A DNA stretch of 64,000 nt. Origin: Williamsia sp. 1138 (lineage in GTDB: Bacteria; Actinomycetota; Actinomycetes; Mycobacteriales; Mycobacteriaceae). Shown here piece after piece: positions 4,302-18,172 of this stretch (positions within the stretch are counted from its first letter, which is position 1; each line of letters starts with the position of its first letter). The position numbers and the translations under genes are program-made. The DNA lies in NCBI RefSeq assembly GCF_002095435.2, contig NZ_MJEJ02000050.1, positions 186,001 through 250,000 of the forward strand. Direction: 5' to 3'. The notes under the pieces were generated by a model that worked only from the letters and a program-made list of their open reading frames with translations, did not search any database and was not told where the DNA came from.

Positions 4302-4380
4302 GGTGAGCCAGCCTACCCGTACCCGATGATGTGCTGTTCTGGCGAACAAAAGCCCAGGTCGAATCCGCCATAACGACCCA

Positions 4381-4848
4381 TCATCGGGGGAGCCAGCCGT
4401 AGTCGACGGAGCGCTCGTCGGTGTCGAGGTCACGGGTCAGCCGGATCAGCAGGTGCCGTCCGGCGAGCCGCTCGGCGACGCCCTCGCCCCATTCGACGAC
4501 GACCACCGAATCGGTGAGGTCGGTGTCGAGGTCGAGTGCGTCGAGTTCATCGAGATCGCCGAGCCGATACGCATCGACGTGGATCATCGCCGGTCGTCCC
4601 GGACCACCGGGACGATGCTCACGCGCGATGATGAACGTGGGCGAGGTGATCCGCCCCTGCACCCCGAGGCCTGCACCGATCCCCCGCGCCATCGCTGTCT
4701 TGCCTGCACCCAGCGGACCGTCCAGGATCACCAGGTCTCCCGCCGCGAGTTCGGTCGCCAGCTCACGACCGAAGGCTTCGGTGTCCTCGACGGTGGGCAG
4801 ATTCCGACGATGAGGCAGCTCCACCTGGCGCTCCGGATCTGAACTCAC
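4381..4848 (-). CDS. tsaE: t6A biosynthesis ATPase TsaE
   Basis: TsaE is the P-loop ATPase that drives the TsaB-TsaD complex. The 155-residue protein has Walker A GPLGAGKTAMARGIG, the following ITSPTFIIAREH switch region, and VVVVEWGEG near the C-terminus, all diagnostic. The start is GTG 4848, overlapping the hydrolase stop (GTGA); the upstream open frame to 4953 lies inside the hydrolase gene. The next gene, tsaB, begins 79 bp downstream. Confidence 0.95.
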   Translation of the reverse strand: MSSDPERQVELPHRRNLPTVEDTEAFGRELATELAAGDLVILDGPLGAGKTAMARGIGAGLGVQGRITSPTFIIAREHRPGGPGRPAMIHVDAYRLGDLDELDALDLDTDLTDSVVVVEWGEGVAERLAGRHLLIRLTRDLDTDERSVDYGWLPR

Positions 4849-5894
4849 TGCCGTGGAACCCGCTGAACCAGAGCGTCGATCGACTCGGTGATCACCGCCG
4901 GATTCTCCAACATCACCATGTGCCCGCAGTCTGCGACCCCGACGAGTTCGCACTTCGGACCCAATTTGTTGTGCAGCTCAACAGAGTTCGGCAAGGGCGT
5001 CACCTTGTCCTCGTACCCGCACGCCACCATGGTGTCGATCCCGGAGAGCACTGCCAGGCCGGCCGTCTCGTCGTGCTCTTCCAGAGCCCGCAGGAAGTTG
5101 ACGACGGTGTCGATGCGGGTGCGCTGGATCACCGATTCGGTGAACTCGGCGACCGCCGGAGAATGAAAGGTCGAGCCGAAACTGCCCGCGGTCAGCACGG
5201 GCGCCATCAGCAGCCTGGTCAGCCCGCGGCCCGCCTCCACCGCCCGGGGCGCTTGCCGCACGGACAGCCGGAAAGCATCGACGAGTGGATTCTGGAGTCC
5301 GCGACCCAGGCCCGCCTCGGCGATACCATGCGCCGCCGATGCGACCAGACCCACGCCGATCACCCTGGAACCGAACAACTCAGGACGTCTGCTCGCCAAG
5401 GCCATGATTGCCATACCGCCCATCGAGTGCCCGACCAGGACGACCGGCCCCACGGGCACCACCGAGCGCAGGACGGCTTCGAGGTCGGCAGCCATCTGCG
5501 TGATGGTGCACGAATTGGGTGAGGCCTGCCCGGACTCACCGTGGCCGCGGTGGTCGAAGAACACCATCCGCACGTCGTCGCCCCACTTGACGGCGAGATC
5601 ACGACGCTGGAAATGCCACGTCGACATCCGCAGGCAGAATCCATGGACGAAGACGACAGTCAACGGCGCATCCGAGGGTCCGACCTCCCGGACGGCCAGT
5701 GGCACACCGTCATCGGCGACGACGATACTCGCGTGGTCGTCGTAGATCAGACCGAAGTCCTCGATGGAGTTCGGATCCACAGATGTGGGTGTGCGACGGG
5801 TGATCGAGCGCACGGCAGCGCCCACCGCCAGGGCGCCCAGAGTCGCGACGCCGGCAGATCCGGCCAGGATCTCGAGCCGTCCAGAACGTTCCAT
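4845..5894 (-). CDS. Alpha/beta hydrolase with N-terminal membrane anchor
   Basis: A 349-residue alpha/beta-hydrolase. Residues ~10-30 form a hydrophobic N-terminal segment (LAGSAGVATLGALAVGAAV), probably a membrane anchor or signal. The catalytic fold shows VVFVHGFCLRMSTW (oxyanion hole), DHRGHGESG, the nucleophile elbow GHSMGG, and a C-terminal CGHMVMLENP with the catalytic His. It sits between alr (no gap; the alr stop is immediately followed by this ATG) and tsaE (four-base overlap). An equivalent hydrolase is found next to alr/tsaE in mycobacteria, as far as I recall. The substrate is unknown; a lipid or ester is plausible. Confidence 0.88.
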   Translation of the reverse strand: MERSGRLEILAGSAGVATLGALAVGAAVRSITRRTPTSVDPNSIEDFGLIYDDHASIVVADDGVPLAVREVGPSDAPLTVVFVHGFCLRMSTWHFQRRDLAVKWGDDVRMVFFDHRGHGESGQASPNSCTITQMAADLEAVLRSVVPVGPVVLVGHSMGGMAIMALASRRPELFGSRVIGVGLVASAAHGIAEAGLGRGLQNPLVDAFRLSVRQAPRAVEAGRGLTRLLMAPVLTAGSFGSTFHSPAVAEFTESVIQRTRIDTVVNFLRALEEHDETAGLAVLSGIDTMVACGYEDKVTPLPNSVELHNKLGPKCELVGVADCGHMVMLENPAVITESIDALVQRVPRQ

Positions 5895-7064
5895 CTATGT
5901 TGCCCCGATGTCGTGGGTGCTGCGTGGTCCGGTGGGTGCGGGTTCACTGCTGTACGTACGGATCGTGCGGCCCCGGATGCCGGACACGATCTCGTAGTCG
6001 ATGGAACCGATGGCTTCGGCCCAGTCCAGCGCGGTGGGTCCACCACCGGCACCCGTCCCGAAAAGGATGGCCCGATCGCCTTCGGCGACACCACCACCAT
6101 CGGGTCCGAGATCGACCACCATCTGGTCCATGCAGACACGGCCGACGCCGGGAAAGCCGCGGCCGTTGATGTGCACCCGGAGTTGGTTCGACACCAGCCG
6201 CGGCACCCCGTCCGCGTAGCCGGCCGGCAGCAACGCGACTGTGGTGTCCCGCGGGGCGACCCACGTGTGACTGTACGAAACCCCTTGTCCCGCCTTGATC
6301 TTCTTCAGTGAAAGGACCTCGGCGGAGAGGGTCATGACCGGCACCAGCCCGAAGTCGCCGCGGTCGGGTGCCGGAGAACGACCGTAGACGGCGATGCCGG
6401 GCCGGACCAGGTCGCGGGCGAGATCGGGTCTCATCAGCGTCGCCGCCGAGTTCGCGATGTGCTGCACCTGCGGACGCGCACCCACCCGAACCAGGTCGGC
6501 CACGGCCTCGTCGAAGCGGCGCGCCTGCAGATCGTTCTCGGGGTGCTGCGGCTCGTCTCCCCGGACCAGATGGGTCATCGCACCACGGAGGACGATCGAC
6601 TGCTCGGCAACGGCTTTCGCCAGCCCGGCGGCGATCTCATCCCATTCCGCAGGCGCGACACCGTTCCGGGCCAGGCCGGTATCGATCTTGAGCGTCACCG
6701 AAGCGCTCCGCCCGACCACGCGGGCCGCGGCGACCACCGCGTCGAGTTGTCTGGGCGAGGAGACACCGATCTGGACGTCGGCGGCGATCGCGCCGGCGAA
6801 ATCGGACCCGCGACTGTGCAACCAGGCCAGGATGGGAGCGTTCACCCCGTCGCGGCGTACTGCCAACGCCTCGTCGATCGTCGCGACGCCGAGTTCGGCC
6901 GCGCCGGCCGCAAGGGCGGCCCGCGCAACCCGCGCGGCGCCGTGCCCGTACCCGTCGGCCTTGACGACCACCATCACCTGCGCGGTCGTGTGCGACTGCA
7001 AGATCTCGATGTTGTGGGCCACCGCGGAGAGATCGATGTGTGCCTCGAGCGCCGGAGAGTTCAT
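5895..7064 (-). CDS. alr: Alanine racemase
   Basis: Alr makes D-alanine for peptidoglycan using PLP. The 389-residue protein shows the PLP-lysine motif VVVKADGYGHGA near residue 34-45, substrate-side Arg/His segments (RGAMTHLVRGDEP) and the catalytic Tyr region AGQGVSYSHTW. The start ATG 7064 overlaps the nnr stop by four bases; the longer open frame upstream lies within nnr and is Arg-rich, so it is rejected. Expressed in the glmS-nnr-alr run, which couples amino-sugar and D-Ala supply for the cell wall. Confidence 0.97.
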   Translation of the reverse strand: MNSPALEAHIDLSAVAHNIEILQSHTTAQVMVVVKADGYGHGAARVARAALAAGAAELGVATIDEALAVRRDGVNAPILAWLHSRGSDFAGAIAADVQIGVSSPRQLDAVVAAARVVGRSASVTLKIDTGLARNGVAPAEWDEIAAGLAKAVAEQSIVLRGAMTHLVRGDEPQHPENDLQARRFDEAVADLVRVGARPQVQHIANSAATLMRPDLARDLVRPGIAVYGRSPAPDRGDFGLVPVMTLSAEVLSLKKIKAGQGVSYSHTWVAPRDTTVALLPAGYADGVPRLVSNQLRVHINGRGFPGVGRVCMDQMVVDLGPDGGGVAEGDRAILFGTGAGGGPTALDWAEAIGSIDYEIVSGIRGRTIRTYSSEPAPTGPRSTHDIGAT

Positions 7065-8545
7065 CGCTGGCCATCTTCCCATCCGGTCAGCGCGGCGTCG
7101 CCACGAGTCCGCTCGGCGAGCAACGCGCGGAGCGTCGGTGATACGGCCCGTACCAGAGCGGAGGCCCCGATCGGCGCAGCCCCGGTATTCGCCGACGTCG
7201 ATCCCGCGGACGCGGTGATCGCGGCACGGGCGTGCACCCGCGCGGCAGCGGCAGCGGCGAGGGGGGCCGCGATACCGGCGGCGAGCAGGCTGCCCGCGAT
7301 GCCCGAGAGCACGTCGCCCGCCCCGGCGCTCGCAGCCCACGACGACCTCGCGTCGTTGACCAGCACCTCGCCGTCCGGGGAGGCGATCACGGTGGCCCGG
7401 CCCTTGAGCAACACCGTCACACCCAATTCGGCGGCGAGTCCGCGCACGGCCCCGATCCGGTCCGCGCCCACCTCGGCGCCGGTGATGCGGGCGAACTCCC
7501 CCGCATGCGGGGTGAGCAGCGTCGGCGCGCTGCGGCCGACGACGAGCTCGCGATGCTGCGCCAGCAACGTCAGGCCATCGGCGTCGATGAGGACCGGCAC
7601 GTCGGTGTCCAACACGTGCCGCAGCCGCCGCAATCCGGTGTCCTCGGTGCCGGCACCAGGTCCGACCACCCAGGCCTGCACCTTGCCCGCATCTTCGGGT
7701 TCTTCGGTCGCGATCACCTCAGGATAGTGCGAAAGGACTTGCGGCCCAGCAGTACCGGCGTATCGGACCATGCCGGATGTAGCCGCGACCGCTGCGCCGC
7801 TACACAACACACCGGCTCCCGGATACCGCGCCGACCCCGCGACGATGCCGACCACACCCTGGCTGTACTTGTCATCCGACGGGCCCGGAACAGGCCACAG
7901 TCCCGCGACCTCTGCGTCGGTCAGCTGCCGGAGCGTGGGCTTGCACGCCTTGATCCCGATGTCGGCCAGCACCGTTCGACCACACTGCGGCGCCGCGAGT
8001 ACATGCGCTATCCGGAATGCCCCGAAGGTGACGGTGACCGCCGCGCGGACGGCGGGGTCGTTGACCTCGCCGGTGTCCGCATCGACCCCGGACGGCAGGT
8101 CCACCGACACGATCGGCACGGTCACAGACTCGACGATGGCTGCCGCCGCGGGTCGCAGGGGCCCTTTCCCACTCAGTCCGACGATTCCGTCGACCACGAG
8201 ATCGATTCCGGCAGAGAATGTCTCGACGACGCGTCCACCGGCGCGCCGGAAGCTCTCCAGTCCGGCGGCATGCGTCCGCTCACCACCGAGCAGAATTGCC
8301 TCGGCCCTCACCCCGCGGCGCCGGAGCAGCGCTGCCGCGTACAACGCATCGCCGCCGTTGTCGCCGGCACCCGCGAGCACACCGACGCAACGACCGTAAC
8401 AACCACCGGTCCGCGAGCGCAGTTCGGCCGCAACGACATCAGCGACGGCATGCGCGGCCCGACCCATCAGTACACCGCGTTCGAGCAGGTCCCCGGTCGC
8501 CTCTTCGGCGGCCCGGATCTGCTCGGCACTGAAGTAACCGATCAT
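7061..8545 (-). CDS. nnr: Bifunctional NAD(P)H-hydrate epimerase/dehydratase
   Basis: Repairs damaged NAD(P)H hydrates. The 494-residue protein is a fusion: residues ~1-215 form the YjeF_N epimerase domain (GVLAGAGDNGGDALYAA, the epimerase nucleotide site), and residues ~220-494 the ADP/ATP-dependent dehydratase domain (TPHAGEFARITG and the signature SAGAGDVLSGIAGSLLA). Start ATG 8545 gives MIGYFSAEQIRAAE, the usual beginning. It lies 16 bp after glmS and overlaps alr by four bases, so all three are probably co-transcribed. Confidence 0.95.
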   Translation of the reverse strand: MIGYFSAEQIRAAEEATGDLLERGVLMGRAAHAVADVVAAELRSRTGGCYGRCVGVLAGAGDNGGDALYAAALLRRRGVRAEAILLGGERTHAAGLESFRRAGGRVVETFSAGIDLVVDGIVGLSGKGPLRPAAAAIVESVTVPIVSVDLPSGVDADTGEVNDPAVRAAVTVTFGAFRIAHVLAAPQCGRTVLADIGIKACKPTLRQLTDAEVAGLWPVPGPSDDKYSQGVVGIVAGSARYPGAGVLCSGAAVAATSGMVRYAGTAGPQVLSHYPEVIATEEPEDAGKVQAWVVGPGAGTEDTGLRRLRHVLDTDVPVLIDADGLTLLAQHRELVVGRSAPTLLTPHAGEFARITGAEVGADRIGAVRGLAAELGVTVLLKGRATVIASPDGEVLVNDARSSWAASAGAGDVLSGIAGSLLAAGIAAPLAAAAAARVHARAAITASAGSTSANTGAAPIGASALVRAVSPTLRALLAERTRGDAALTGWEDGQR

Positions 8546-8561: not shown

Positions 8562-10424
8562 CTACTCGACGGTGACGGACTTGGCCAGGTTGCGTGGTTT
8601 GTCCACGTCGTAGCCCCGGGCCTGGGCCACCGCAGCGGCAAAGACCTGCAGCGGCACAGTGGAAACCAGAGGCTGCAGCAAGGTGGGCACCTGCGGGATC
8701 CGGATCAGATGGTCTGCGACGTCGAGTACCGTGTCGTCGCCGTCCTCGGCGATGACGATCGTGGTCGCACCGCGTGCCTGGATCTCGCGGATGTTGCTGA
8801 CCATCTTCGAATGCAGCACCGCCCTGCCGGTCGGCGAGGGCATGACGATGATGACCGGGAGGTTGTCCTCGATCAGTGCGATGGGACCGTGCTTGAGCTC
8901 GCCCGCAGCGAATCCCTCGGCGTGCATGTATGCCAGCTCTTTGAGTTTGAGCGCACCCTCGAGTGCCACCGGGTACCCCACGTGCCGTCCCAGGAAGAGG
9001 ACGGTCGGGCTCGCGCTCAGGGAGCGGGCCAATTCCCGAACCGGTTCGACCGTCTCGAGCACCTTCTCGACCGCAGCGGGCATCGCCTCGAGAGCAGCGA
9101 ACTCACGGGCGACTTCGTCCGGGTACTTGGTTCCGCGCGCCTGCGCGAGCGCCAGCCCGACGAGGTACGTCGCGGTGATCTGAGCCAAGAAGCACTTCGT
9201 CGAGGCGACGCCGATCTCGGGCCCGGCGTGGGTGTAGAGCACCGCGTCGGACTCGCGCGGGATCTGGGCCCCATTGGTGTTGCAGATCGCCAGGACGCGG
9301 GCCTTCTGCTCTTTCGCGTGCCGGACCGCCTCCAAGGTGTCCGCCGTCTCACCGGACTGCGAGATGGCCACGACCAAGGTCGAGCGATCCAGAACCGGGT
9401 CGCGATACCGGAACTCGCTGGCCAGCTCGACCTCGACGGGAAGCCTCGTCCAGTGCTCGATGGCGTACTTCGACAGCAGCCCGGCGTGATAAGCGGTGCC
9501 GCAGGCAACGACGAAGATCTTGTCGATGTCGCGCAGATCCTCATCGGTCAGGCGCTGCTCGTCAAGGATGATCCGGCCGTTCTCGAAGTGCCCGAGCAGG
9601 GTGTCGGCAAGCGCCTGCGGCTGCTCGGCGATCTCCTTGAGCATGAAGTAGTCGTAGCCACCCTTTTCGGCGGCGGCGAGGTCCCAGTCGATGTGAAACG
9701 GCCTGCCGGGCTCTACATTGCCGGTGAAGTCCGTGATCTTGTAGGTATCGGCCGTGATCACCACCACCTGGTCCTGACCGAGCTCCACCGCTTCGCGGGT
9801 GTGTTCGATGAACGCGGCGACGTCCGAGCCGACGAACATCTCGTTCTCCCCGACGCCGACCACCAGCGGTGTCGAGCGCCGGGCGGCGACAATCGTGTCG
9901 GCATGATCGGCATGGGTGAACACGAGCGTGAACGCACCTTCGAGCCGGCCCAGCACCGCGTATGCGCTGCCGACGAAGTCACCCGCGGTCGGACCCGACG
10001 CGTACTGGAGGGCCATCAGATGGACCGCGACCTCTGTATCGGTGTCGGAGCTGAACTCGATACCGGCCTGCTCGACCTCGCTGCGCAGTGCGGCAAAGTT
10101 CTCGATGATCCCGTTGTGGACGACGGCGATCTTGCCGTCAATGCTGGTGTGAGGATGGGCATTGCGGTCGGTGGGGCGACCGTGGGTGGCCCATCGGGTG
10201 TGTCCCATGCCGGTCGTACCGGCGAACGCGTCCCGGCCGAGGGTCGCGAGCTCCTTGTCCAGATTCTCGAGCCGCCCGGCCTTCTTCTCCACCGCGGTGT
10301 GTCCGGCCCCGTCGAGAATGGCGACGCCGGCAGAGTCGTACCCGCGGTATTCCATCCGTCGCAGTGCCTCGACAACAATCTCGAGAGCATCGCGTTTGCC
10401 CACGTATCCGACGATTCCACACAT
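8562..10424 (-). CDS. glmS: Glutamine--fructose-6-phosphate aminotransferase (isomerizing)
   Basis: GlmS converts fructose-6-P and glutamine to glucosamine-6-P, first step to UDP-GlcNAc. After removal of Met the protein begins with the catalytic Cys (CGIVGYVGKRDA), an Ntn glutaminase domain (GHTRWATHG), followed by two SIS domains (ISQSGETADTLEA; VGYPVALEGALKLKELAYMH) and the C-terminal KPRNLAKSVTVE. Length 620 matches the family. ATG 10424 is fixed by the need for Cys2. It heads the minus-strand cluster running to tsaD. GlmM, acting two steps later, is also in this window (20757-22094). Confidence 0.98.
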   Translation of the reverse strand: MCGIVGYVGKRDALEIVVEALRRMEYRGYDSAGVAILDGAGHTAVEKKAGRLENLDKELATLGRDAFAGTTGMGHTRWATHGRPTDRNAHPHTSIDGKIAVVHNGIIENFAALRSEVEQAGIEFSSDTDTEVAVHLMALQYASGPTAGDFVGSAYAVLGRLEGAFTLVFTHADHADTIVAARRSTPLVVGVGENEMFVGSDVAAFIEHTREAVELGQDQVVVITADTYKITDFTGNVEPGRPFHIDWDLAAAEKGGYDYFMLKEIAEQPQALADTLLGHFENGRIILDEQRLTDEDLRDIDKIFVVACGTAYHAGLLSKYAIEHWTRLPVEVELASEFRYRDPVLDRSTLVVAISQSGETADTLEAVRHAKEQKARVLAICNTNGAQIPRESDAVLYTHAGPEIGVASTKCFLAQITATYLVGLALAQARGTKYPDEVAREFAALEAMPAAVEKVLETVEPVRELARSLSASPTVLFLGRHVGYPVALEGALKLKELAYMHAEGFAAGELKHGPIALIEDNLPVIIVMPSPTGRAVLHSKMVSNIREIQARGATTIVIAEDGDDTVLDVADHLIRIPQVPTLLQPLVSTVPLQVFAAAVAQARGYDVDKPRNLAKSVTVE

Positions 10425-10520
10425 AGTGCTACAGGGTACTTGCCCACTTCGGCAGGACAGAATCTCCAAACGTCAGCACGAAGTTCGTGATTCGAGATGA
10501 CACGAAATGATGTTGTGGGC

Positions 10521-10691
10521 TACAGTGAGCGAACTCTTGGAGTTCACGGGCGAGAGTCCGCGAGAGTCGAGGGGGATGCGTCGGTTGGGACGCCATCGAT
10601 ACGTTCGATCCGTATGTCCTCCACCACCGGTGGTCTCACACCCACCCACCAACCAGCGTCAAACGTCCACCGATTCGGTGGGCGTTTTTTT
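10521..10691 (+). ncRNA. Candidate structured small RNA with intrinsic terminator
   Basis: The 405-bp gap between divergent glmS and the esterase gene has no convincing protein gene. Reading + strand it has a possible -10 (TACAGT, 10521-10526) and then a run of hairpins: GAACTC/GAGTTC (10531-10545), GCGTC/GACGC (10578-10593), ATACG/CGTAT (10599-10615), the palindrome ACCACCGGTGGT (10623-10634), and finally a strong terminator hairpin with a seven-T tail (10663-10691). With glmS on the other strand, a + strand terminator here needs a + strand transcript of about 160 nt. I do not recognise an RNA family. Short open frames exist but have no ribosome site. Confidence 0.4.
10663..10691 (+). terminator. 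Rho-independent terminator
   Basis: Ten-base arms ACGTCCACCG (10663-10672) and CGGTGGGCGT (10676-10685) with a three-base loop and one G-U pair, followed by TTTTTTT. This is the clearest textbook terminator in the window and it faces + strand, upstream of the esterase gene. Confidence 0.85.
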
Positions 10692-10733
10692 GGCGTGCCT
10701 GCCGCGCCTGCCGCAACACGGCGTGGATGGCAA

Positions 10734-10762
10734 TTGACCCATTTCCCTTCTGTAACCAGTAT
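10734..10762 (+). promoter_or_regulatory. Putative promoter of the esterase/MprF-like operon
   Basis: TTGACC at 10734-10739 and CAGTAT at 10757-10762 are 17 bp apart, a SigA-like arrangement immediately after the terminator at 10663-10691. A transcript from here would have a leader of about 60 nt before ATG 10830. Confidence 0.45.
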
Positions 10763-10829
10763 TCCGCGCACTTAGCCGGTACCTTTTTCCTGCAGGCTCA
10801 ACGACGATCAAGGGCACCGAAGGACACGC

Positions 10830-12116
10830 ATGAACTGGCTGTGGGAAACATCGGTGCTCGACGGCTGGGTGCCGTGGACCATCTTGATCTTGGGGATCCT
10901 GGGACTGGCATGGCTGGTCCTGCTGTTCCAGAAGGTCTATCTCCTGTATGTGGTCCCCCTGGCGGCAGTCGTATCGATATTGCTGGTGGTCCTGGCCAAG
11001 TGGCTCATCGAAGACGTGTGGAAACTGTTCGCCGATCCGATACCGCTCAACTGCTACATCTGGGGCGGACTCGCGGTGTTCGCGATCCTTCTCCTCGTCC
11101 CTCGGCTGATCCGGGGTAGCGGCGTCTTCGGCCGGATCATCACGGTGCTGGCAACGGTGTTCGCCGTGACGATGGCTTTTTCGCAGATCAACGAACATTT
11201 CAGCGAGTATCCGACGGTCGGGTCGGTGGTCGGGATCAGCAACGTCAAGACGATCTCCCTCGAGGAAGCCCGCAACAACGACATCAAGACCGTCGAATTG
11301 AGCCAGTGGAAGAAGCCGAGCAGCCTGCCCGCCGAGGGTGCGGTCATCACCGCACCGATCCCCGGTGCGACCTCGAACTTCAATGCCCGCCCCGCAAAGA
11401 TCTACCTGCCGCCGGCGTACTTCACCGAGCCGCGTCCACTGCTCCCGGTGCTGGTCCTGATGGCCGGACAGCCAGGATCTCCGGAGGACTGGCTCGTCGG
11501 CGGCCGACTCACCCAGACCATGGATCAGTACGCCGCCGCGAACGAGGGACTCTCACCCATCGTGGTGGTCGCCGACGCCACCGGCGACGAACTCGCCAAT
11601 CCGCTCTGCATGGACTCGAAACTCGGCAATGTGGCCACTTACCTGGCCAAAGACGTTCCCGAGTGGACCAAGGCGAATCTCCAGGTCGACTCCGACGCCA
11701 AGGCGTGGGCAATCGGAGGCCTGTCCTATGGCGGCACGTGTTCGCTGCAGATGACCACCAACTACCCCGAGATCTACCCGACGTTCCTCAATATGTCCGG
11801 GCAGCTGGAGCCGACCCTCGGCGACCGCAAACGCACCGTCGACCAGGCCTTCGGCGGCGACGCAGCGAAGTTCACGGCCGTCAATCCGATGGACATCATG
11901 AAAACAAAGCAGTTCCCCGGGGTCGCAGGCGCATTTGTCGTCGGAAAAGACGACGCCGAGTACCGGCCAGGCCTCACCCAGGTCTTCCAGGCGGCGCAGG
12001 CGGCGGGGATGGACGTGCATCTCGACACCGTCCCGGGCGGGCATTCGTTCGCGGTCTGGTCGGCCGGACTCAAACTCGAGATGCCGTGGCTCGGCAAACG
12101 CCTGGGTTTGCCGTGA
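10830..12116 (+). CDS. Membrane-anchored esterase (alpha/beta hydrolase), possible aminoacyl-lipid hydrolase
   Basis: A 428-residue protein. The first ~120 residues contain about four membrane segments (WTILILGILGLAWLVLLF, LYVVPLAAVVSILLVVLA and so on). The rest is an esterase-D-like alpha/beta hydrolase with nucleophile elbow GGLSYGGTCS (Ser299) and a catalytic His in PGGHSFAVW (His405). GAAGGACACGC precedes ATG 10830. It is 109 bp upstream of the MprF-like gene on the same strand. In Corynebacterium and Enterococcus, hydrolases that remove amino acids from aminoacylated phosphatidylglycerol are encoded next to the synthase; by context this could be such an enzyme. A trehalose mycolyltransferase-like or other esterase role cannot be excluded. 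Confidence 0.8.
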   Translation: MNWLWETSVLDGWVPWTILILGILGLAWLVLLFQKVYLLYVVPLAAVVSILLVVLAKWLIEDVWKLFADPIPLNCYIWGGLAVFAILLLVPRLIRGSGVFGRIITVLATVFAVTMAFSQINEHFSEYPTVGSVVGISNVKTISLEEARNNDIKTVELSQWKKPSSLPAEGAVITAPIPGATSNFNARPAKIYLPPAYFTEPRPLLPVLVLMAGQPGSPEDWLVGGRLTQTMDQYAAANEGLSPIVVVADATGDELANPLCMDSKLGNVATYLAKDVPEWTKANLQVDSDAKAWAIGGLSYGGTCSLQMTTNYPEIYPTFLNMSGQLEPTLGDRKRTVDQAFGGDAAKFTAVNPMDIMKTKQFPGVAGAFVVGKDDAEYRPGLTQVFQAAQAAGMDVHLDTVPGGHSFAVWSAGLKLEMPWLGKRLGLP

Positions 12117-12225
12117 ACTAGGCAATTATTCTCCTCAGACGCGACATTTCACACACCGATCGCATACCCCCCACCCCGCACAGCGAGTCACAGCTCGCAC
12201 GTCCGGCAACCACCGAAAGGCGCCG

Positions 12226-14361
12226 ATGAGCACGACCGACACCCCCAGCGAGGCACCCCCGTCCGAGCCGGCGGCGGCCCCATCGCCCGTCGCGAAGGTG
12301 TTCGGTGCCATCAGCTGGACCGCACGCAAGGTGCCGTTCACGACCACCGTCGTCGTGGCGATCATCGTCATCGGCATCATCACCGGTGCCCTGTGGGAGA
12401 CGGTCGGCGACAAGAGCTGGTTCAACGACATCGCGTACGGCTACCCACCCCTGACCGAGAGCAAATGGTGGACGCCCCTGTCGGGCATGTTGTTCAAGTC
12501 CAGCCCGCTCAGCTACCTCTTCATCACTCTTCTGTTCGCGGTCTTCGTGGGTTGGAGTGAGTGGCTCCTGGGCACGGTCAGGGTCGCGATCGTCACCATC
12601 GCGGGACAGCTCATCGGTGTGCTCGGTGCCATCGCGTTCATCGCGATCTTCCGCCCGACGAGCTGGGCCTGGGTCGATCACCTCGCCGAGGTCCGCGACG
12701 TGGGCGTCACCACCGCCATCGTCGCCGCGATCGCCGCAGCAAGCGCCACGCTCAAGTCGCCGTGGCGTCTACGGGTCCGGGCCGTTCTCCTTGCCTACGT
12801 GGCCATCTCGTTCCTGTTCGAAGGCAAGCTGGCGGACGTGACCCACCTGATCGCGGTGGTGGTCATGCTGATCATCGGCGAGCGGTTCTTCAGCAAGAGC
12901 GAGTCCGGCGTCATGCCTCGTACCCGCCAAGAAATCCGGATGATCAGCTTCATCGGCCTGGTCTTGATCGCAGTGGTCAACATCGCGGTCGCGGTGTTCC
13001 CAGGCGACGGGCCGTTCGGGCCGACCGACTCGAACGACAGCCTCAGCTGGGGTTCGATAGTCAGCGTCCTGATCGTGTTGCTCATCGCCGACCAGCTCCG
13101 CCGAGGCCGTAAATGGGCCTGGTGGGTCACCGTCGTCTACGGTCTGCTGTACATCGCCCTGCTGGTCCTGGTCCTCATTGCCGTGATCACCTCGAGTTTC
13201 GAGGGCAAGGGCGCCGTCACCGTCGGTACCGGGCTGCTGTGGATCGTGGAGCTGACCCTGCTGTTCGGCGGTCGCTATGCGTTCATGGTCCCGTTGAACA
13301 GCCGGAAAGCCATGGCAGGTATGGGCGGGTCGAACCCCGCAGAACAGGTACGCAGCCTACTCAAGAAGTACGGCGGCAGCACCATGAGCTGGATGATCAC
13401 CTGGGAGAACAACCAGTACGCGTTCACCAAGGACGGTGAAGGTGTGATCGGTTACCAGCGTCCCGCCGGGACCGTGCTCGCGTTGGCCGATCCCGTCTGC
13501 GCACCCGAAAAACTCGAGGAGACCATCCGGGAGTTCACCGACATGGCCGAGAACAGTGCTCGTATCCCATGCTGGTTCTCCGTCAGTGAGGCCACCGCCT
13601 CCATCGCCCGCGACATGGGTTGGCGAACCCTGCAGATCGCCGAGGACACGATCATCGACCTGCCGACGCTGGCCTTCAAAGGAAAGCCCTGGCAGGACAT
13701 CCGATCGGCTCTCAACCGGGCGAAGAAAGAGGGCATCACCTTCAAACTGACGACCCTGAAAGACGAGCCCTTCGCAGTGGTGGCCCAGGTGCGGGCGATC
13801 TCCGAGGAATGGGTCGGCGACAAGGGACTGCCTGAGATGGGGTTCACACTCGGCAGTGTCGAAGAGGCGTTGGATCCCGAGGTCCGGGTTGCCCTGGCCA
13901 TCGACGACACCGGGTCGGTGCACGGAGTGTTGTCGTGGCTGCCGGTCTTCGGTGGCGGTGACACCATGCGCGGCTGGACCCTCGACGTGATGCGACGCCG
14001 CGACGACGGCTTCCGGCCGTGTATCGAGTTCCTCATCGCCAGTTCGGCCCTCGCGTTCAAAGCCGAAGGCGCCGAGATCCTCTCGCTGTCGGGCGCACCG
14101 CTTGCACGAGCGGAGGACGATACCAGCGAGGTCGTGGCGATGGACCGGATGCTCGACATGATGGGCGCCGCAATGGAGCCCTTCTACGGCTTCCGGTCGC
14201 TGCACGCGTTCAAGATGAAGTTCCAGCCCCGCTACGAACCGGTCTACATGTGCTTCCGGGACGAGGGTGACCTACCGCGCATCGGGGTGGCTCTCACCCG
14301 CGCCTATCTTCCCAACGCCACCCCCGGTCAGATGATCAAACTCGCAACCACCAGGGAGTAG
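12226..14361 (+). CDS. MprF-like aminoacyl-phosphatidylglycerol synthase (DUF2156)
   Basis: A 711-residue membrane protein. The N-terminal ~360 residues hold several membrane helices; the early YGYPPLTESKWWTPLSGML segment resembles the rhomboid-like N-terminus of actinobacterial MprF homologues. From about residue 375 a soluble DUF2156 (dupli-GNAT) domain follows: SWMITWENNQYAFTKDGEG, GTVLALADPVCAPEK, and a C-terminal FKMKFQPRYEPVYMCF. Such domains move an amino acid from aminoacyl-tRNA to phosphatidylglycerol or another lipid. Unlike mycobacterial LysX there is no fused LysRS domain. ATG 12226 is preceded by GAAAGG. It is followed after 8 bp by the DUF2254 gene. The amino acid used is unknown; the neighbouring AlaRS-like gene suggests alanine. 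Confidence 0.85.
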   Translation: MSTTDTPSEAPPSEPAAAPSPVAKVFGAISWTARKVPFTTTVVVAIIVIGIITGALWETVGDKSWFNDIAYGYPPLTESKWWTPLSGMLFKSSPLSYLFITLLFAVFVGWSEWLLGTVRVAIVTIAGQLIGVLGAIAFIAIFRPTSWAWVDHLAEVRDVGVTTAIVAAIAAASATLKSPWRLRVRAVLLAYVAISFLFEGKLADVTHLIAVVVMLIIGERFFSKSESGVMPRTRQEIRMISFIGLVLIAVVNIAVAVFPGDGPFGPTDSNDSLSWGSIVSVLIVLLIADQLRRGRKWAWWVTVVYGLLYIALLVLVLIAVITSSFEGKGAVTVGTGLLWIVELTLLFGGRYAFMVPLNSRKAMAGMGGSNPAEQVRSLLKKYGGSTMSWMITWENNQYAFTKDGEGVIGYQRPAGTVLALADPVCAPEKLEETIREFTDMAENSARIPCWFSVSEATASIARDMGWRTLQIAEDTIIDLPTLAFKGKPWQDIRSALNRAKKEGITFKLTTLKDEPFAVVAQVRAISEEWVGDKGLPEMGFTLGSVEEALDPEVRVALAIDDTGSVHGVLSWLPVFGGGDTMRGWTLDVMRRRDDGFRPCIEFLIASSALAFKAEGAEILSLSGAPLARAEDDTSEVVAMDRMLDMMGAAMEPFYGFRSLHAFKMKFQPRYEPVYMCFRDEGDLPRIGVALTRAYLPNATPGQMIKLATTRE

Positions 14362-14369
14362 CCGCAGCG

Positions 14370-15770
14370 ATGCGGGTGGTCGCCGATCTCGGCAGACTCA
14401 TCGCCGACCGGGTGCGGTGGCGCCGTACCAAACGCCGGCTGGGCTCTGTACGGATCTGGCGACTGCCCGTGATGCTGATCTTCCTCGCCGTGGTGATGAC
14501 GGGGGTCTTCGGCGCCATCGACAACGCGACGGCGGCCGACGCCGTCGACACGGGCACCATGGCCACCCTGCTCAGCGCCATCGCGGGTGGGATGATCACC
14601 CTGACCGGTCTGGTCTTCACCGCCACGACGCTGGCGATGCAGTTCGGTGCGACCCAGGTCTCGGTGAGGGTGGTTCCTGTCCTGCAACAGGACCCGATCA
14701 TGCGGTGGTCCAACGGGCTGTTTCTGGCGACCTTCGTCTATTCACTGATCGTGGCGTCTGACATGGCATCCGACGACAACCGCGCGCCGATCGCATCGGG
14801 CGCTTTTGCGCTGTTCCTCGCCTTCGCGAGCGCGATCATGTTCGTCGTGCTCGTCAGCAAAGTCGGCCGAATCCTGAACTCCACCAGGTTGCTCCGCTGG
14901 ATCGCCGACGAAGGGCACAAGACGATCAAGCGGACGTTCATCGACGCGTCCTCGGATCCGGCCGCCGCAGCCGTCGCAGCGCCGTCCCCGTCGTACGGAA
15001 CCACGGACCCCGGCGCCCCGATGACGCTCGTGCGGCTGCGACGGCTCCCGAGCAAGGGGCGCGTACTCGTGGCGATCAATTTGCCGCAGTTGCAGCGCCT
15101 CGGAACGCGTTGGGGCGTGCAGCTCGACGTCTTGCCCCGCATCGGAGACTTCGTGGCCTACGAGGCTCCGTTGTTCGCGGTGTACGGGGTCTCCGACGAT
15201 CTCAACGAGATCAGGCAGCGGCAGCTCCTGGCGACCATGTGTTTCGGCGACGCCCACCGGCCGGCGGTCAGTCCGTCGGCGGCTCTGCAGGCCATCGTGG
15301 ACGTCGCCCTCAAGGCCTTGTCTCCCGCCATCAACGACCCGGGCCGCGCCGTCCAGGCCATCGACCACCTCGAAGACCTGCTGCTCCTACTGGCCCCGCG
15401 GGTGCGCACCGACCGGACCCTCGAAGTGATGTCACGGGTGCACGGGTACCGACGGACCTGGAACGACTACGTTTCACTCGCCACCGATGAGATCCGGCAT
15501 TTCAGCACCAATTCGACACAGGTCCAGCGCAGGCTGCGGGCGCTCCTGCTGACGCTTCAGGCCAGCACACCGCAGGCCCAGCATCCACCCCTGGTGGAAC
15601 GGATCGCCGCACTCGATCAGCAGGTCCGCACCGAGTGGAAGACCGATCTCGATATCCGGCTCGCGAGCGTCGCCGACCCGCAGGGCCTCGGCTCGGAGTC
15701 CGGCAGCCAGTCGCCCACCACCGCCCCCGACCAGACCGACAATCCGGATCCCGGAGCCAGCCCGGGTTGA
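14370..15770 (+). CDS. DUF2254 family membrane protein
   Basis: A 466-residue protein with four predicted membrane segments in the first ~190 residues (MLIFLAVVMTGVFGAI; the segment around ATLLSAIAGGMITLTGLVFT; FLATFVYSLIVAS; GAFALFLAFASAIMFVVLV) and a cytoplasmic C-terminal region containing ALKALSPAINDPGRAVQAID, the best-conserved part of DUF2254. Function of the family is unknown. ATG 14370 is 8 bp after the MprF-like stop, so the two are almost certainly co-transcribed. The C-terminal ~35 residues are low-complexity (Ser, Pro, Asp). Its stop codon lies in a hairpin shared with the convergent AlaRS-like gene. Confidence 0.85.
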   Translation: MRVVADLGRLIADRVRWRRTKRRLGSVRIWRLPVMLIFLAVVMTGVFGAIDNATAADAVDTGTMATLLSAIAGGMITLTGLVFTATTLAMQFGATQVSVRVVPVLQQDPIMRWSNGLFLATFVYSLIVASDMASDDNRAPIASGAFALFLAFASAIMFVVLVSKVGRILNSTRLLRWIADEGHKTIKRTFIDASSDPAAAAVAAPSPSYGTTDPGAPMTLVRLRRLPSKGRVLVAINLPQLQRLGTRWGVQLDVLPRIGDFVAYEAPLFAVYGVSDDLNEIRQRQLLATMCFGDAHRPAVSPSAALQAIVDVALKALSPAINDPGRAVQAIDHLEDLLLLLAPRVRTDRTLEVMSRVHGYRRTWNDYVSLATDEIRHFSTNSTQVQRRLRALLLTLQASTPQAQHPPLVERIAALDQQVRTEWKTDLDIRLASVADPQGLGSESGSQSPTTAPDQTDNPDPGASPG

Positions 15771-15788
15771 GCCGGCAGCACCGGCTCA
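15768..15788. terminator. Bidirectional hairpin containing both convergent stop codons
   Basis: TGAGCCGG (15768-15775) and CCGGCTCA (15781-15788) form perfect eight-base arms with a five-base loop. The first three bases are the DUF2254 stop TGA and the last three are the complement of the AlaRS-like stop TGA. There is no T-run on either strand, so termination efficiency is uncertain. Confidence 0.5.
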
Positions 15789-17198
15789 GTCGGCGGCGGC
15801 CCCGAGCTTCGTCGAGGCTTGCGAACGAGCACGCTGCGCCTCGATCTCCGAATCGAACTCCGCTCGCCAATTCACGGTCATCGGCAGCCCGCGGGTCACG
15901 GCTTCCTCGGCGGACAACTCGACCGGGAACCCGAACGTGTCGGACAACTTGAACAGATCCTTGCCGGTCACCGTCTCACCGGTCTTGCCCAGCCGCTTGA
16001 GTTCACGCAGGCCCTTGCCAAGAGTCCGGCGGAACGACCGCTCCTCTTTCTCCAGTACCTCGATCACGTTCTCGCGCCGCTCGGCGACCTCTGGGTATGC
16101 GTCGGTGTAGAGATCCGCGACCACCGGCACGAGCTGCGTCAGCAGTTTGTCCTGGACGCCGAGTTGGTGGGCGAACCGGATCGCCCGGCGCACCAGCCGG
16201 CGCATCACGTATCCCTGTTCCTTGTTCGACGGCACCACGCCGTCCACCGCGAGGAAGACCGCGCCACGGATGTGGTCGGCGATGACCCGCATCGCCACGG
16301 TGTTGTCGTCGTACCCGACCCCGGACAATTCCTCGATCTTCTGCACGATCGGCCACAGCAGACTGATCCGGTACACATCAGGACTGTCGATGGAGGCGGC
16401 CGCGATCCGTTCGAGGCCACCGCCGTAATCGACGTTGAGCTTGGGCAACTCGGCGAAGCCCTCTACTGTCTTCGCGTATTGCATGAAGACCGAGTTGCCG
16501 ATCTCCATGTACTGCCCACCGTCGGAGTTCTGATGTGGGTACCGACCGAACGCGGTGTCGTGCTCGACCTGCGGGAAGTAGTAGAAGACCTCGCTGTCGG
16601 GTCCACCGGGATCGCCGACCGGCATCGTCTCCGGTCCCCCGGACCGCGACCACCAGTTCTTGTCGCTGTAGTACGCGATCCGCGCTCCCTGGTTGCCGAC
16701 CTCATTGCCGTGTTCTTCGGTCAGCAACACCACCCGGTCGGCGGAAACCCCCGCCTTGGTGAACAATTCGGTCCAGATGTCGGCACTCTCGTCGTCCCGC
16801 GGGATCCCGTTCTCGGGATCACCCGAGAACACGGTCACGTAGATGCGATTCGGGTCGAGACCGACGATCTCGGTGAGGAAATGCCAGAACAGCGGAATCT
16901 GCTCACTCTTGAAGTAGTCACCGAGACTCCAGTTCCCGAGCATCTCGAAGAACGTGGTGTGCCGGTTGTCGCCCACCTCTTCGATGTCCTGCGACCTCAG
17001 GCACGTCTGCGAGTCCGCGAGTCGCTTCCCCGCGGGATGTTCGGCGCCGAGCAGATACTTGAGCAGCGGCTGCATTCCGCTGCCCGTGAACAGCGTGGTC
17101 GGGTCGTCTTTGGGCACAAGCGGTGCGCGGGGAATCACGGTGTGACCGCGTTCGGTCATCAAGGTGAGATAGGCACTGCGGATCTCATTGGCATCCAT
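15786..17198 (-). CDS. Catalytic-only alanyl-tRNA synthetase homologue (no editing or C-Ala domain)
   Basis: 470 residues, about half of a normal AlaRS (~880). It retains class II motif 1 (around LFTGSGMQPLLKYLLG), motif 2 (RHTTFFEMLGNWSLGDYFKS, residues ~79-98) and motif 3 (NVDYGGGLERI), in which the Asp that contacts the alanine amino group in E. coli AlaRS is kept (Asp257 here). The tRNA-recognition part (DHIRGAVFLAVDGVVPSNK, GYVMRRLVRRAIRFAHQLG) is also present. The protein stops where the E. coli 461-residue active fragment stops, so the editing (SerX) and DHHA1 domains are missing. A full-length housekeeping AlaRS is presumed elsewhere. It is convergent with the MprF-like/DUF2254 genes, suggesting a role in supplying alanyl-tRNA for lipid alanylation, or an amino-acid-activating role without tRNA. 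Confidence 0.85.
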   Translation of the reverse strand: MDANEIRSAYLTLMTERGHTVIPRAPLVPKDDPTTLFTGSGMQPLLKYLLGAEHPAGKRLADSQTCLRSQDIEEVGDNRHTTFFEMLGNWSLGDYFKSEQIPLFWHFLTEIVGLDPNRIYVTVFSGDPENGIPRDDESADIWTELFTKAGVSADRVVLLTEEHGNEVGNQGARIAYYSDKNWWSRSGGPETMPVGDPGGPDSEVFYYFPQVEHDTAFGRYPHQNSDGGQYMEIGNSVFMQYAKTVEGFAELPKLNVDYGGGLERIAAASIDSPDVYRISLLWPIVQKIEELSGVGYDDNTVAMRVIADHIRGAVFLAVDGVVPSNKEQGYVMRRLVRRAIRFAHQLGVQDKLLTQLVPVVADLYTDAYPEVAERRENVIEVLEKEERSFRRTLGKGLRELKRLGKTGETVTGKDLFKLSDTFGFPVELSAEEAVTRGLPMTVNWRAEFDSEIEAQRARSQASTKLGAAAD

Positions 17199-17317: not shown

Positions 17318-18172
17318 GTGGCCAACCCCAAGAAGCTCCTTTCGCAGCTGTCCAAGACCGGACCGCACAAGGTTCTGCGCGGCGACATGGCGATCGTCGG
17401 ATTACCCGGCACCCTCTATGCCCCCGCCGAAGGAAAGGACCTCCCGGGAATCGCCTTCGGCCACGGCTGGCTCACCGGTGCCAAGCAGTACTACAAGACC
17501 CTGGCGCACCTGGCGTCGTGGGGCATCGTCGCCGCGGCTCCGACCACCGAAAAGGGCATGCTGGCGTCCGATCAGGGGCTGGCCGCCGACCTCGAGACAA
17601 CGTTGTCGGTGATCAGTGAGGTCCGACTGGGTGCAGGCGATATCACCGTGCACAAACATCGACTGGGTCTGGCCGGCCACGGGTTCGGCGCGTCGGCCGC
17701 GACACTGGCCGCCGCCCGAAGCGAACGAGCCAGAGCACTTGCCGCACTGTTTCCGGCTCCGACGAGCAGCGCAGTCCTGCCTGCCGCCCGTGAGGTCACA
17801 GTGCCGGCCCTGATCGTCGTCGCACCGGGCGAACTCGAGTCGATGACGTCCAACGCACTGGCCCTGCGACGGGCCCTCGGCGCCGATGACACCGTGCTCC
17901 GGATGGCACCACGGACCGAGAACCGGGGTCTGGCCGAGGGTTTCAGCGTGCGGTCCAAGCTCGGCGCCGGCGGCAACGACCGGAAGACCCAGAAGATCAG
18001 CCGGGGCGTGCTCACCGGATTCCTGCTCCACCAGCTCACCGAGGACAGCAAGTACGCCGCGTTCAGCGATCCGGACGCCGGCCTCGGCAAGCTCTTGACC
18101 GTCGACCCCGACGCGCTTCCGCCTGGGGCAGAAGACCTGATCGATCCGTTGACCCGACTGCTGCGGAAGTAG
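17318..18172 (+). CDS. Alpha/beta-hydrolase-fold protein without nucleophile Ser (Rv3438-like)
   Basis: 284 residues, dienelactone-hydrolase-like fold: LPGIAFGHGWLTGAKQYYK (oxyanion region), WGIVAAAPTTEKG, and the elbow GLAGHGFGASAATLAA, where the usual GxSxG Ser is replaced by Gly (GHGFG). VPALIVVAPGELE follows as the expected strand. Either it is a non-catalytic member or uses another residue. Position (between the glmS side and the EspC-like/Ala-Pro-rich genes next to glmM) and length match M. tuberculosis Rv3438 as I remember it. Start GTG 17318 is leaderless-like. Confidence 0.75.
   Translation: MANPKKLLSQLSKTGPHKVLRGDMAIVGLPGTLYAPAEGKDLPGIAFGHGWLTGAKQYYKTLAHLASWGIVAAAPTTEKGMLASDQGLAADLETTLSVISEVRLGAGDITVHKHRLGLAGHGFGASAATLAAARSERARALAALFPAPTSSAVLPAAREVTVPALIVVAPGELESMTSNALALRRALGADDTVLRMAPRTENRGLAEGFSVRSKLGAGGNDRKTQKISRGVLTGFLLHQLTEDSKYAAFSDPDAGLGKLLTVDPDALPPGAEDLIDPLTRLLRK

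What the first reader, a model, noticed from the sequence alone, without database searches (positions are those of the whole stretch)
10830..17198. Candidate lipid-aminoacylation module: esterase, MprF-like synthase, DUF2254 and a stand-alone AlaRS catalytic protein
Seen: membrane esterase (10830-12116), DUF2156/MprF-like protein (12226-14361) and DUF2254 protein (14370-15770) in one operon, converging on a catalytic-only AlaRS homologue (15786-17198). Known: MprF-type enzymes take an amino acid from aminoacyl-tRNA; mycobacterial LysX fuses such a synthase to LysRS; lipid alanylation with a linked hydrolase is described in Corynebacterium. Inference: here the dedicated synthetase is encoded separately and is AlaRS-like, a split counterpart of LysX that would make alanyl-phosphatidylglycerol or alanyl-diacylglycerol, with the esterase removing it. 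The block lies between glmS and the Rv3438-like gene, where M. tuberculosis has nothing comparable as I recall.
Basis: partly seen in the sequence, partly recalled or inferred. Interest (0 to 1): 0.8.

Follow-up and report, generated by a model that had tools for sequence, protein, structure and literature searches.

The report
Split alanyl-lipid module with epibiont-derived AlaRS
Williamsia and several other actinobacteria carry a second, stripped-down alanine-loading enzyme whose closest relatives are in tiny bacteria that live on actinobacteria (Saccharibacteria), and in many genomes it sits beside genes that probably put alanine on, and take it off, membrane lipids.

Summary
In detail: four real genes, one encoding a 470-aa second AlaRS beside an 891-aa canonical one. 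The lipid link is supported by comparison. A DUF2156 synthase gene lies in the fetched surroundings of the short AlaRS at 28 of 45 actinobacterial loci (26 AlaDAGS/MprF-type, 2 LysX), against 0 of 18 canonical alaS loci. Of 401 family genomes, all 28 with the short AlaRS encode the synthase type; 151 of the other 373 do. DUF2254 is not core (3 of 8 Williamsia carriers). The unexpected part is origin: the short AlaRS falls inside the housekeeping AlaRS of Saccharibacteria, apparently captured twice (main clade; Agreia), a single clade being rejected (AU p 0.004). Sequences of both captures that were scanned lack the editing domain found in most Saccharibacteria ones. Three loci also have aspartate 4-decarboxylase, which makes alanine. 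Best reading: a captured synthetase supplies Ala-tRNA to an AlaDAGS-type enzyme, a split analogue of LysX. No activity was tested; 14 of 45 loci have none of synthase, esterase or decarboxylase nearby. Novelty: new variant of a known kind.

The parts
10830..12116 (+). Membrane-anchored esterase (PF00756), PesT-like; predicted to remove alanine from lipid (inferred)
   Evidence: Pfam 60.8 bits; candidate triad S299, D375, H405 invariant in 11 aligned sequences; hydrophobic segments only in the N-terminal third; near the synthase in all 8 Williamsia carriers
12226..14361 (+). AlaDAGS/MprF-type aminoacyl-tRNA:lipid transferase: membrane domain plus DUF2156/LPG_synthase_C domain
   Evidence: Pfam 250.7 bits; AlphaFold model matches A-PGS 4v35/4v34 and L-PGS 4v36 over the synthase domain, TMt 0.80-0.82; relatives near the short AlaRS in Gordonia, Pseudonocardia, Nakamurella, Mumia, Agreia and a Microbacterium-group genome
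14370..15770 (+). DUF2254 membrane protein; accessory, function unknown
   Evidence: Pfam 227.9 bits; at the locus in 3 of 8 Williamsia carriers, and one distant relative (31% identity) at a Humibacillus locus
15786..17198 (-). Short AlaRS, Saccharibacteria-type: catalytic and tRNA-recognition domains, no editing domain, no C-Ala
   Evidence: Pfam 369.1 bits, profile 1-433 of 552; model pLDDT 86, matches AlaRS catalytic-fragment structures 9jdn, 1riq, 3hxu at E 1e-36 to 1e-37; tree inside Saccharibacteria; six active-site positions kept
17318..18172 (+). Alpha/beta-hydrolase-like protein, divergent neighbour; kept beside the short AlaRS in the 8 Williamsia carriers only; membership of the module uncertain
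   Evidence: Weak Pfam matches below cut-off; 82-100% identity in the 8 Williamsia loci, no match at the other loci searched

Best explanation
The block is a tRNA-dependent lipid-alanylation module in which the synthetase is a separate, horizontally acquired protein. The 470-aa AlaRS activates alanine and charges the cell's own tRNA-Ala. The DUF2156 enzyme (AlaDAGS type) moves alanine from Ala-tRNA to diacylglycerol or phosphatidylglycerol. The membrane esterase hydrolyses the product. The short AlaRS descends from the housekeeping AlaRS of Saccharibacteria (epibionts of actinobacteria), captured at least twice. It lost the editing part, presumably because it no longer has to serve translation. 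Shown here: gene content, linkage, co-occurrence, ancestry, retained residues, absence of the editing domain. Inferred: enzymatic activity, alanine specificity, the lipid product, esterase action, and the reason for keeping the gene.
For: Adjacency 26 of 45 loci (28 with LysX); controls 0 of 18 canonical alaS loci (9 of them Williamsia) and 0 of 59 Saccharibacteria-type loci. The synthase converges with or diverges from the AlaRS in different lineages; the adjacency state needs at least 6 changes on a 54-row tree. Co-occurrence 28 of 28 against 151 of 373; the Williamsia without the short AlaRS (G001) lacks the synthase at that cut-off too. Outside the family, 6 of 6 genomes examined (of 8 with no intact synthase nearby) have a full-length one elsewhere. 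Positions 68, 183, 235, 257, 259, 264 are identical in 39 short AlaRS, 21 Saccharibacteria-type, 28 Patescibacteria and 8 canonical sequences. Ancestry. Editing domain: in 9 of 23 members of A5, the number of its Saccharibacteria rows, and in none of the 5 further actinobacterial sequences scanned, 3 of them Agreia. Aspartate 4-decarboxylase over the curated cut-off near it at 3 loci. A Saccharimonadia epibiont with 27 Mycolata host species is on record (PMC12592800, passage).
Against: 14 of 45 loci show no synthase, esterase or decarboxylase in the stretch fetched (L072 has only 1.5 kb on one side); in one Rhodococcus/Rhodococcoides-group genome checked the gene lies between cobN and cobG (L062). 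Elsewhere-located synthase genes have the esterase directly beside them in 3 of 3 g6 genomes but not in 3 of 3 g23 genomes, and among 6 genomes outside the family only 1 has an esterase in the stretch, not adjacent. Most family genomes with the synthase type have no short AlaRS (151 of 179), so the canonical AlaRS can suffice. No tRNA-Ala gene lies near the 34 loci scanned of 45. In one group Glu263, kept in the canonical and Saccharibacteria rows, is Ala in 7 of 11, and Asn89 is Ser in 2 of 11. Alanine specificity of the synthase rests on relatedness, not on a residue test. Adjacency counts are not phylogenetically independent.
Confidence: 0.65

Rival explanations
1. A spare AlaRS for translation: a backup or inhibitor-resistant (or zinc-independent) copy that keeps charging tRNA-Ala when the canonical enzyme is blocked; the lipid genes are incidental neighbours.
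For: It keeps catalytic residues and, in 34 of 39 sequences, both the Asn and Asp recalled as readers of G3:U70. A second AlaRS giving self-resistance is described for AcmD (PMC12945691, passages). The Cys pair at 225/227 found in 16 of 21 Saccharibacteria-type rows is absent from the Williamsia, Gordonia, Pseudonocardia and Agreia sequences. 14 of 45 loci lack the lipid genes nearby.
Against: No editing domain and repeated linkage to a lipid synthase, not seen around canonical alaS. The 9 actinobacterial genomes searched with the short AlaRS keep a long canonical AlaRS.
Confidence: 0.13
2. The module makes a lipid with an amino acid other than alanine, or with several, because the editing-free enzyme mischarges serine or glycine, or has drifted in tRNA choice.
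For: No editing domain, and the only SAD-domain matches in the window's genome lie in 891-aa and 715-aa frames (the canonical AlaRS and, by inference, ThrRS). In five Gordonia/Rhodococcus-MAG sequences the Asn is lost in 5 and the Asp in 3.
Against: The Gly and Asp of the amino-acid pocket are invariant; the AlaDAGS homologue of Corynebacterium makes an alanyl lipid (PMC10580965, section 5). The Asp is also replaced in 20 of 28 Patescibacteria rows, so its loss need not change tRNA choice.
Confidence: 0.12
3. The short AlaRS has become a transferase like AcmF or an aminoacyl ligase for a small molecule or carrier protein, and does not make Ala-tRNA.
For: Truncated AlaRS-like AcmF transfers alanine from Ala-tRNA (PMC12945691, passages).
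Against: AcmF is described as lacking most ATP/alanine residues, with N219Q and D232E changes; here the likely counterparts Asn235 and Asp257 are kept in 39 of 39 (AcmF itself was not aligned).
Confidence: 0.07
4. The gene moved the other way, from actinobacteria to Saccharibacteria, or both got it from a third party.
For: Only part of the relatives was sampled and several deep branches are open. For other genes transfer toward the epibionts is proposed: effectors (PMC12592800, passage) and the type IV secretion system (PMC12102498, abstract).
Against: Rooted on canonical AlaRS, Patescibacteria and Saccharibacteria form a graded series with the actinobacterial genes inside (rooted on one Patescibacteria row); it is the only AlaRS match in 5 of 5 Saccharibacteria genomes searched.
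Confidence: 0.05

Closest known systems
LysX (mycobacteria, corynebacteria): DUF2156 synthase fused to LysRS
   Same: A dedicated class II synthetase supplies aminoacyl-tRNA to a DUF2156 lipid transferase
   Different: Here the synthetase is AlaRS, a separate gene on the other strand, of foreign origin, without an editing domain; P0002 scores 136.7 against the LysX cut-off of 742
AlaDAGS with PesT of Corynebacterium glutamicum
   Same: Esterase plus DUF2156 synthase; P0001 38% and P0002 41% (synthase domain) identical to an adjacent pair in an unnamed 2.0-Mb genome of the same GTDB family, probably Corynebacterium; a second genome of that genus code has a synthase match but no esterase nearby
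   Different: No dedicated AlaRS: the word AlaRS does not occur in the text of PMC10580965
VlmA with VlmL (valanimycin biosynthesis)
   Same: A split pair: separate SerRS paralogue serving an MprF-like GNAT enzyme (PMC2922099, passages)
   Different: Serine, and a small-molecule acceptor instead of a lipid
Housekeeping AlaRS of Candidatus Saccharibacteria (PRK01584 type)
   Same: 55-64% identity over the catalytic and tRNA-recognition part; shared motif blocks
   Different: 57 of 59 frames are 623-664 aa; SAD editing domain in 12 of 14 scanned, the two without it being the short frames L172 and L176; sole AlaRS match in 5 of 5 genomes
ErdS (fungi): AspRS fused to DUF2156
   Same: Synthetase coupled to a DUF2156 lipid transferase (PMC9437257, section 15)
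   Different: Aspartate, ergosterol, fusion
AcmD/AcmF/AcmE of ascamycin biosynthesis
   Same: Extra AlaRS, an alanyl transferase and a hydrolase encoded together (PMC12945691, passages)
   Different: Acceptor is a nucleoside; the truncated AlaRS-like protein AcmF is the transferase, whereas here the truncated AlaRS keeps its ATP/alanine residues

Membership tests
Alanyl-tRNA synthetase | AlaRS catalytic and tRNA-recognition domain (PF01411) | tested here: met
   369.1 bits against cut-off 30.3
Alanyl-tRNA synthetase | Residues for ATP and alanine binding | tested here: met
   Positions 68, 183, 235, 257, 259, 264 identical to 8 canonical enzymes; assignment to function recalled
Alanyl-tRNA synthetase | Full-length architecture with editing domain (TIGR00344 equivalog) | tested here: not met
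   380.0 bits against cut-off 457.05; match ends at profile position 431 of 847; no tRNA_SAD
Alanyl-tRNA synthetase | Charges tRNA-Ala with alanine | not testable with these tools
   Needs purified protein
Saccharibacteria-type AlaRS | Phylogenetic placement inside that group | tested here: met
   Actinobacterial main clade with 6 Saccharibacteria-type rows 100/99, sister L119 99/92;
Saccharibacteria-type AlaRS | PRK01584 (NF002436) equivalog score | tested here: not met
   381.4 bits against 529; the protein is shorter than the model
MprF/AlaDAGS lipid transferase | LPG_synthase_C (DUF2156) domain | tested here: met
   250.7 bits against 27.5; structure match TMt about 0.8
Bifunctional MprF (flippase plus synthase) | NF033480 equivalog including flippase half | tested here: not met
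   168.8 bits against 600; match starts at profile position 483
LysX | Fused LysRS domain (NF002821) | tested here: not met
   136.7 bits against 742, match ends at profile position 565 of 1102
AlaDAGS | Makes alanyl-diacylglycerol | not testable with these tools
   Only relatedness shown
PesT-type esterase | PF00756 domain with Ser-Asp-His candidates, paired with the synthase | tested here: met
   resemblance to named PesT is recalled, its sequence was not in hand
AcmF-like alanyl transferase | Loss of the Asn and Asp of alanine activation | tested here: not met
   Asn235 and Asp257 kept in 39 of 39; AcmF not aligned, equivalence inferred

The most novel reading that the evidence does not exclude
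Actinobacterial hosts captured the essential AlaRS of their Saccharibacteria epibionts at least twice, each time ending without the editing domain and beside an AlaDAGS-type gene, giving a split, foreign-born synthetase dedicated to alanyl-lipid synthesis. In some lineages it is joined by aspartate 4-decarboxylase as a local alanine source, and in one Gordonia lineage it has shed residues thought to read tRNA-Ala identity. Changing surface lipids with the parasite's own enzyme might even affect the parasitism.
Probability: 0.5. Interest if true: 0.87.

Novelty: new variant of a known kind. Interest (0 to 1): 0.76.

Why it matters
Synthetases dedicated to lipid aminoacylation were known, in the papers seen, as fusions with LysRS or AspRS (LysX, ErdS); a separate SerRS serving an MprF-like enzyme is known for an antibiotic (VlmL/VlmA). 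A free-standing, horizontally captured AlaRS would add alanine to the lipid list and show how such modules are assembled. It would also document a core translation gene passing from ultrasmall epibionts to actinobacteria and finding non-translational work twice, and it gives a system in which to ask whether an editing-free synthetase can be kept out of translation.

Tried and rejected
DUF2254 as a core component: rejected, 3 of 8 Williamsia carriers. A dedicated tRNA gene: 34 of the 45 loci were scanned; only one tRNA-Thr and one tRNA-Ser turned up; none in the window. Aspartate 4-decarboxylase in Williamsia: 0 of 9 genomes over the cut-off. Contamination as the source of the Saccharibacteria-like gene: rejected, since 8 of 9 Williamsia genomes have it in the same gene order at 63% G+C in the window's copy; one family carrier, G283, has 7% contamination and is counted among the 28. 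A single actinobacterial capture: rejected by AU test, with the caveat that L149 (Mumia), some Patescibacteria rows and Agreia are on longish branches. A wider sample around a Microbacterium carrier (G754) added none: the carrier itself is the 1 match of 58 genomes.

Literature: searches pairing AlaRS with MprF, DUF2156, aminoacyl-PG or Saccharibacteria found no paper. Other searches listed papers (20 of 55 listed; 61: 2; 63: 1; 71: 3; 84: 12 of 14; 85: 5). Of these I saw passages or sections of PMC9437257, PMC12945691, PMC10580965, PMC12592800 and PMC2922099 and the abstract of PMC12102498; none of what I saw describes a separate AlaRS for lipids. The rest I saw as listings only. The review by Fields and Roy 2018, Smith 2015 and Rose 2025 are not held, so a prior mention cannot be excluded.

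Fisher tests (4e-11 for co-occurrence, 8e-6 for adjacency) ignore relatedness and are description only. Dropped before the 45-locus count: 8 related-loci loci from the same genomes as family loci (L104-L107, L110, L113, L115, L116) and short duplicates L184-L191. The 96-row tree used 39 of the 45 actinobacterial loci, 21 of the 59 Saccharibacteria-type loci and 28 loci from the Patescibacteria search.
Full report
WHAT IS THERE. The four ORFs of the finding are present at the stated coordinates. Pfam gives Esterase (PF00756), LPG_synthase_C (PF09924, 250.7 bits), DUF2254 (PF10011) and tRNA-synt_2c (PF01411, 369.1 bits over profile positions 1-433 of 552). NCBIfam places the 711-aa protein below the cut-offs of bifunctional MprF and LysX, and the 470-aa protein below those of the AlaRS equivalogs, which are longer. 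The window's genome also holds an AlaRS in an 891-aa frame on another contig, so the 470-aa protein is a second AlaRS. The genus is taken to be Williamsia from record titles of loci at 90-99% identity.

CONSERVATION. In the genus, 8 of 9 genomes have the short AlaRS (G001 matches only through its 890-aa AlaRS), all 8 with esterase and synthase nearby and 3 of 8 with DUF2254. G001 also lacks the synthase type at the cut-off used. In the family, 28 of 401 genomes, in 4 of 31 genera, have the short AlaRS at E up to 1e-100. All 28 also encode the synthase type at E up to 1e-60, against 151 of the 373 others; in 18 of the 28 it is a full-length P0002 relative, in 10 a longer protein that matches P0002 mainly in the synthase domain at about 50% identity. 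In a class sample 8 of 394 genomes have the short AlaRS (two of them counted before); among 58 genomes around a Microbacterium carrier only the carrier itself. It is thus patchy.

LINKAGE. Of the 28 family loci, 18 have a full-length synthase relative nearby and 17 of these the esterase. With 17 further loci from Pseudonocardia, Humibacillus, Terrabacter, Microbacterium, Nakamurella, Mumia, Agreia and unnamed class members, the totals are: LPG_synthase_C 28 of 45 (26 AlaDAGS/MprF-type, 2 LysX: L066, L073), esterase 21 of 45, aspartate 4-decarboxylase 3 of 45, none of the three 14 of 45. Loci are 10-19 kb; L059 and L072 reach under 2 kb on one side. The same scan finds 0 of 18 around canonical alaS genes (9 Williamsia, 9 other genomes) and 0 of 59 around Saccharibacteria-type AlaRS, whose loci are 3.6-17.5 kb. 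The synthase converges with the AlaRS in Williamsia, one Gordonia group, Pseudonocardia and Agreia, and diverges from it in another Gordonia group, Nakamurella and Mumia; in L251 it is 7-8 kb off. The adjacency state needs at least 6 changes on a quick 54-row tree.

WHERE IT IS NOT ADJACENT. Outside the family, 6 of 6 genomes examined (of 8) have a full-length synthase elsewhere; only 1 of these 6 has an esterase in the stretch fetched, not adjacent. At L062 (g6) the short AlaRS lies between cobN and cobG. One Microbacterium locus (L111) has the esterase alone. At the Pseudonocardia locus L108 a synthase-like match was seen but no synthase domain.

ANCESTRY. In 5 of 5 Saccharibacteria genomes searched it is the only AlaRS match; 9 of 9 actinobacterial genomes searched alongside also have a long canonical one. 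Of 145 Patescibacteria genomes 143 match, with graded scores. A quick 96-row tree rooted on 8 canonical enzymes puts 37 actinobacterial sequences in one clade and the two Agreia sequences apart, both inside Saccharibacteria. A careful 64-row tree, rooted on one Patescibacteria row, repeats this (main clade 100/100, its sister L119 at 99/92), with 0% of 200 bootstrap trees joining all actinobacterial rows, and the AU test rejects one clade, p 0.0041. Saccharibacteria-type frames are 623-664 aa in 57 of 59 loci, with L172 (463) and L176 (517) shorter; actinobacterial ones are 459-482 aa. The SAD editing domain was found in 9 of the 23 members of A5, which has 9 Saccharibacteria rows, and in 3 of 5 further Saccharibacteria-type proteins, not in L172 and L176; it was absent from 5 further actinobacterial ones, 3 of them Agreia. 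L172 warns that such shortening may also occur outside actinobacteria, or be an assembly effect. Host contact is plausible: a Saccharimonadia epibiont is reported to have 27 Mycolata host species (PMC12592800, passage).

ACTIVE SITE. Positions 68, 183, 235, 257, 259 and 264 are identical in 39 short AlaRS, 21 Saccharibacteria-type, 28 Patescibacteria and 8 canonical sequences. Their roles (motif 2 arginine, alanine-pocket Trp/Asn/Asp/Gly, motif 3 arginine) are recalled. Against full conservation: Glu263 is Ala in 7 of 11 and Asn89 Ser in 2 of 11 of the Intrasporangiaceae/Microbacterium/Nakamurella/Mumia rows. Asn325 and Asp420, aligned to the E. coli residues recalled as readers of G3:U70, are both kept in 34 of 39; in five Gordonia/Rhodococcus-MAG sequences the Asn is lost in 5 and the Asp in 3. 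Asp420 is Asp in only 8 of 28 Patescibacteria rows, so its loss alone says little. The AlphaFold model (pLDDT 86; residues 69-81 poor) aligns with crystal structures of AlaRS catalytic fragments. The synthase model (pLDDT 75, pTM 0.55) matches A-PGS and L-PGS synthase domains at TMt about 0.8; its membrane part is not confidently placed. The esterase keeps Ser299, Asp375 and His405 in 11 of 11 aligned sequences.

MECHANISM. Proposed: alanine is activated and put on tRNA-Ala by the short AlaRS; the DUF2156 enzyme transfers it to diacylglycerol or phosphatidylglycerol; the esterase removes it. Aspartate 4-decarboxylase at three loci (Humibacillus L109, Pseudonocardia L108 and L112; over the curated cut-off) would make alanine on the spot; Williamsia lacks it (0 of 9 over the cut-off). 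The closest worked system is alaDAGS/pesT of Corynebacterium: a C. glutamicum strain lacking both genes served as host without the gene for Ala-DAG and Ala-PG synthesis (PMC10580965, section 5 and passages). An adjacent esterase-synthase pair 38-41% identical to P0001/P0002 was found in one of two genomes examined of a small-genome genus of the family, probably Corynebacterium. The enzymatic steps are inferred.

NOVELTY. LysX and ErdS are fusions of a synthetase with a DUF2156 enzyme (PMC9437257, section 15). A split pair is known outside lipids: SerRS paralogue VlmL with MprF-like VlmA (PMC2922099, passages), where dedicated paralogous synthetases are named as a general class. AcmF/AcmD couple AlaRS relatives to a nucleoside antibiotic (PMC12945691, passages). 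Searches pairing AlaRS with MprF, DUF2156, aminoacyl-PG or Saccharibacteria in the held library found no paper; the main review and the C. glutamicum paper are not held. I call it a new variant of a known kind: separate, alanine-type, captured from an epibiont lineage, editing-free.

LIMITS. No biochemistry; most synthase-bearing family genomes do without the short AlaRS (151 of 179); counts share ancestry; one genome per species; the two-capture claim rests on one alignment approach and model.

Noticed in passing
L062:8671-10065: In a g6 (Rhodococcus/Rhodococcoides-group) genome the short AlaRS sits between cobN and cobG of the cobalamin cluster (cob genes confirmed by NCBIfam at L062 only; the other six g6 loci not checked so); why is unexplained.
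   Followed up: partly
L066:8746-10125 with 10206-13859; L073:8635-10029 with 4063-7530: In two g23 genomes the short AlaRS lies next to or about 1 kb from a full LysX gene (synthase fused to LysRS), so two synthetases for lipid aminoacylation may be encoded together.
   Followed up: partly
P0004 positions 184, 225, 227 (window 15786-17198): A Cys cluster (WWC and CHxNCDC), possibly a metal site, is common in Saccharibacteria and kept in the Rhodococcus group and (225/227) the Intrasporangiaceae/Microbacterium group, but absent from the Williamsia/Gordonia/Pseudonocardia and Agreia sequences.
   Followed up: partly
L059, L061, L065, L067, L071: One synthase-linked Gordonia lineage (plus a Rhodococcus MAG) has lost the Asn (5 of 5) and partly the Asp (3 of 5) recalled as readers of G3:U70, and Asp94 (5 of 5).
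   Followed up: partly
L172:3290-4678: A Saccharibacteria-like AlaRS of only 463 aa without the SAD domain in a MAG titled bacterium isolate WB9_2_340: either a natural editing-free form or an assembly effect.
   Followed up: partly
L121 and L136 (Humibacillus): A second copy of the short AlaRS in Humibacillus xanthopallidus KV-663 (L109 and L121 lie on the same contig); near L121 an Abhydrolase_9 membrane hydrolase and a CHAT-domain gene.
   Followed up: no
L109:9400-11001, L108:11788-13338, L112:6332-7900: Aspartate 4-decarboxylase genes near the short AlaRS, a possible dedicated alanine supply.
   Followed up: partly
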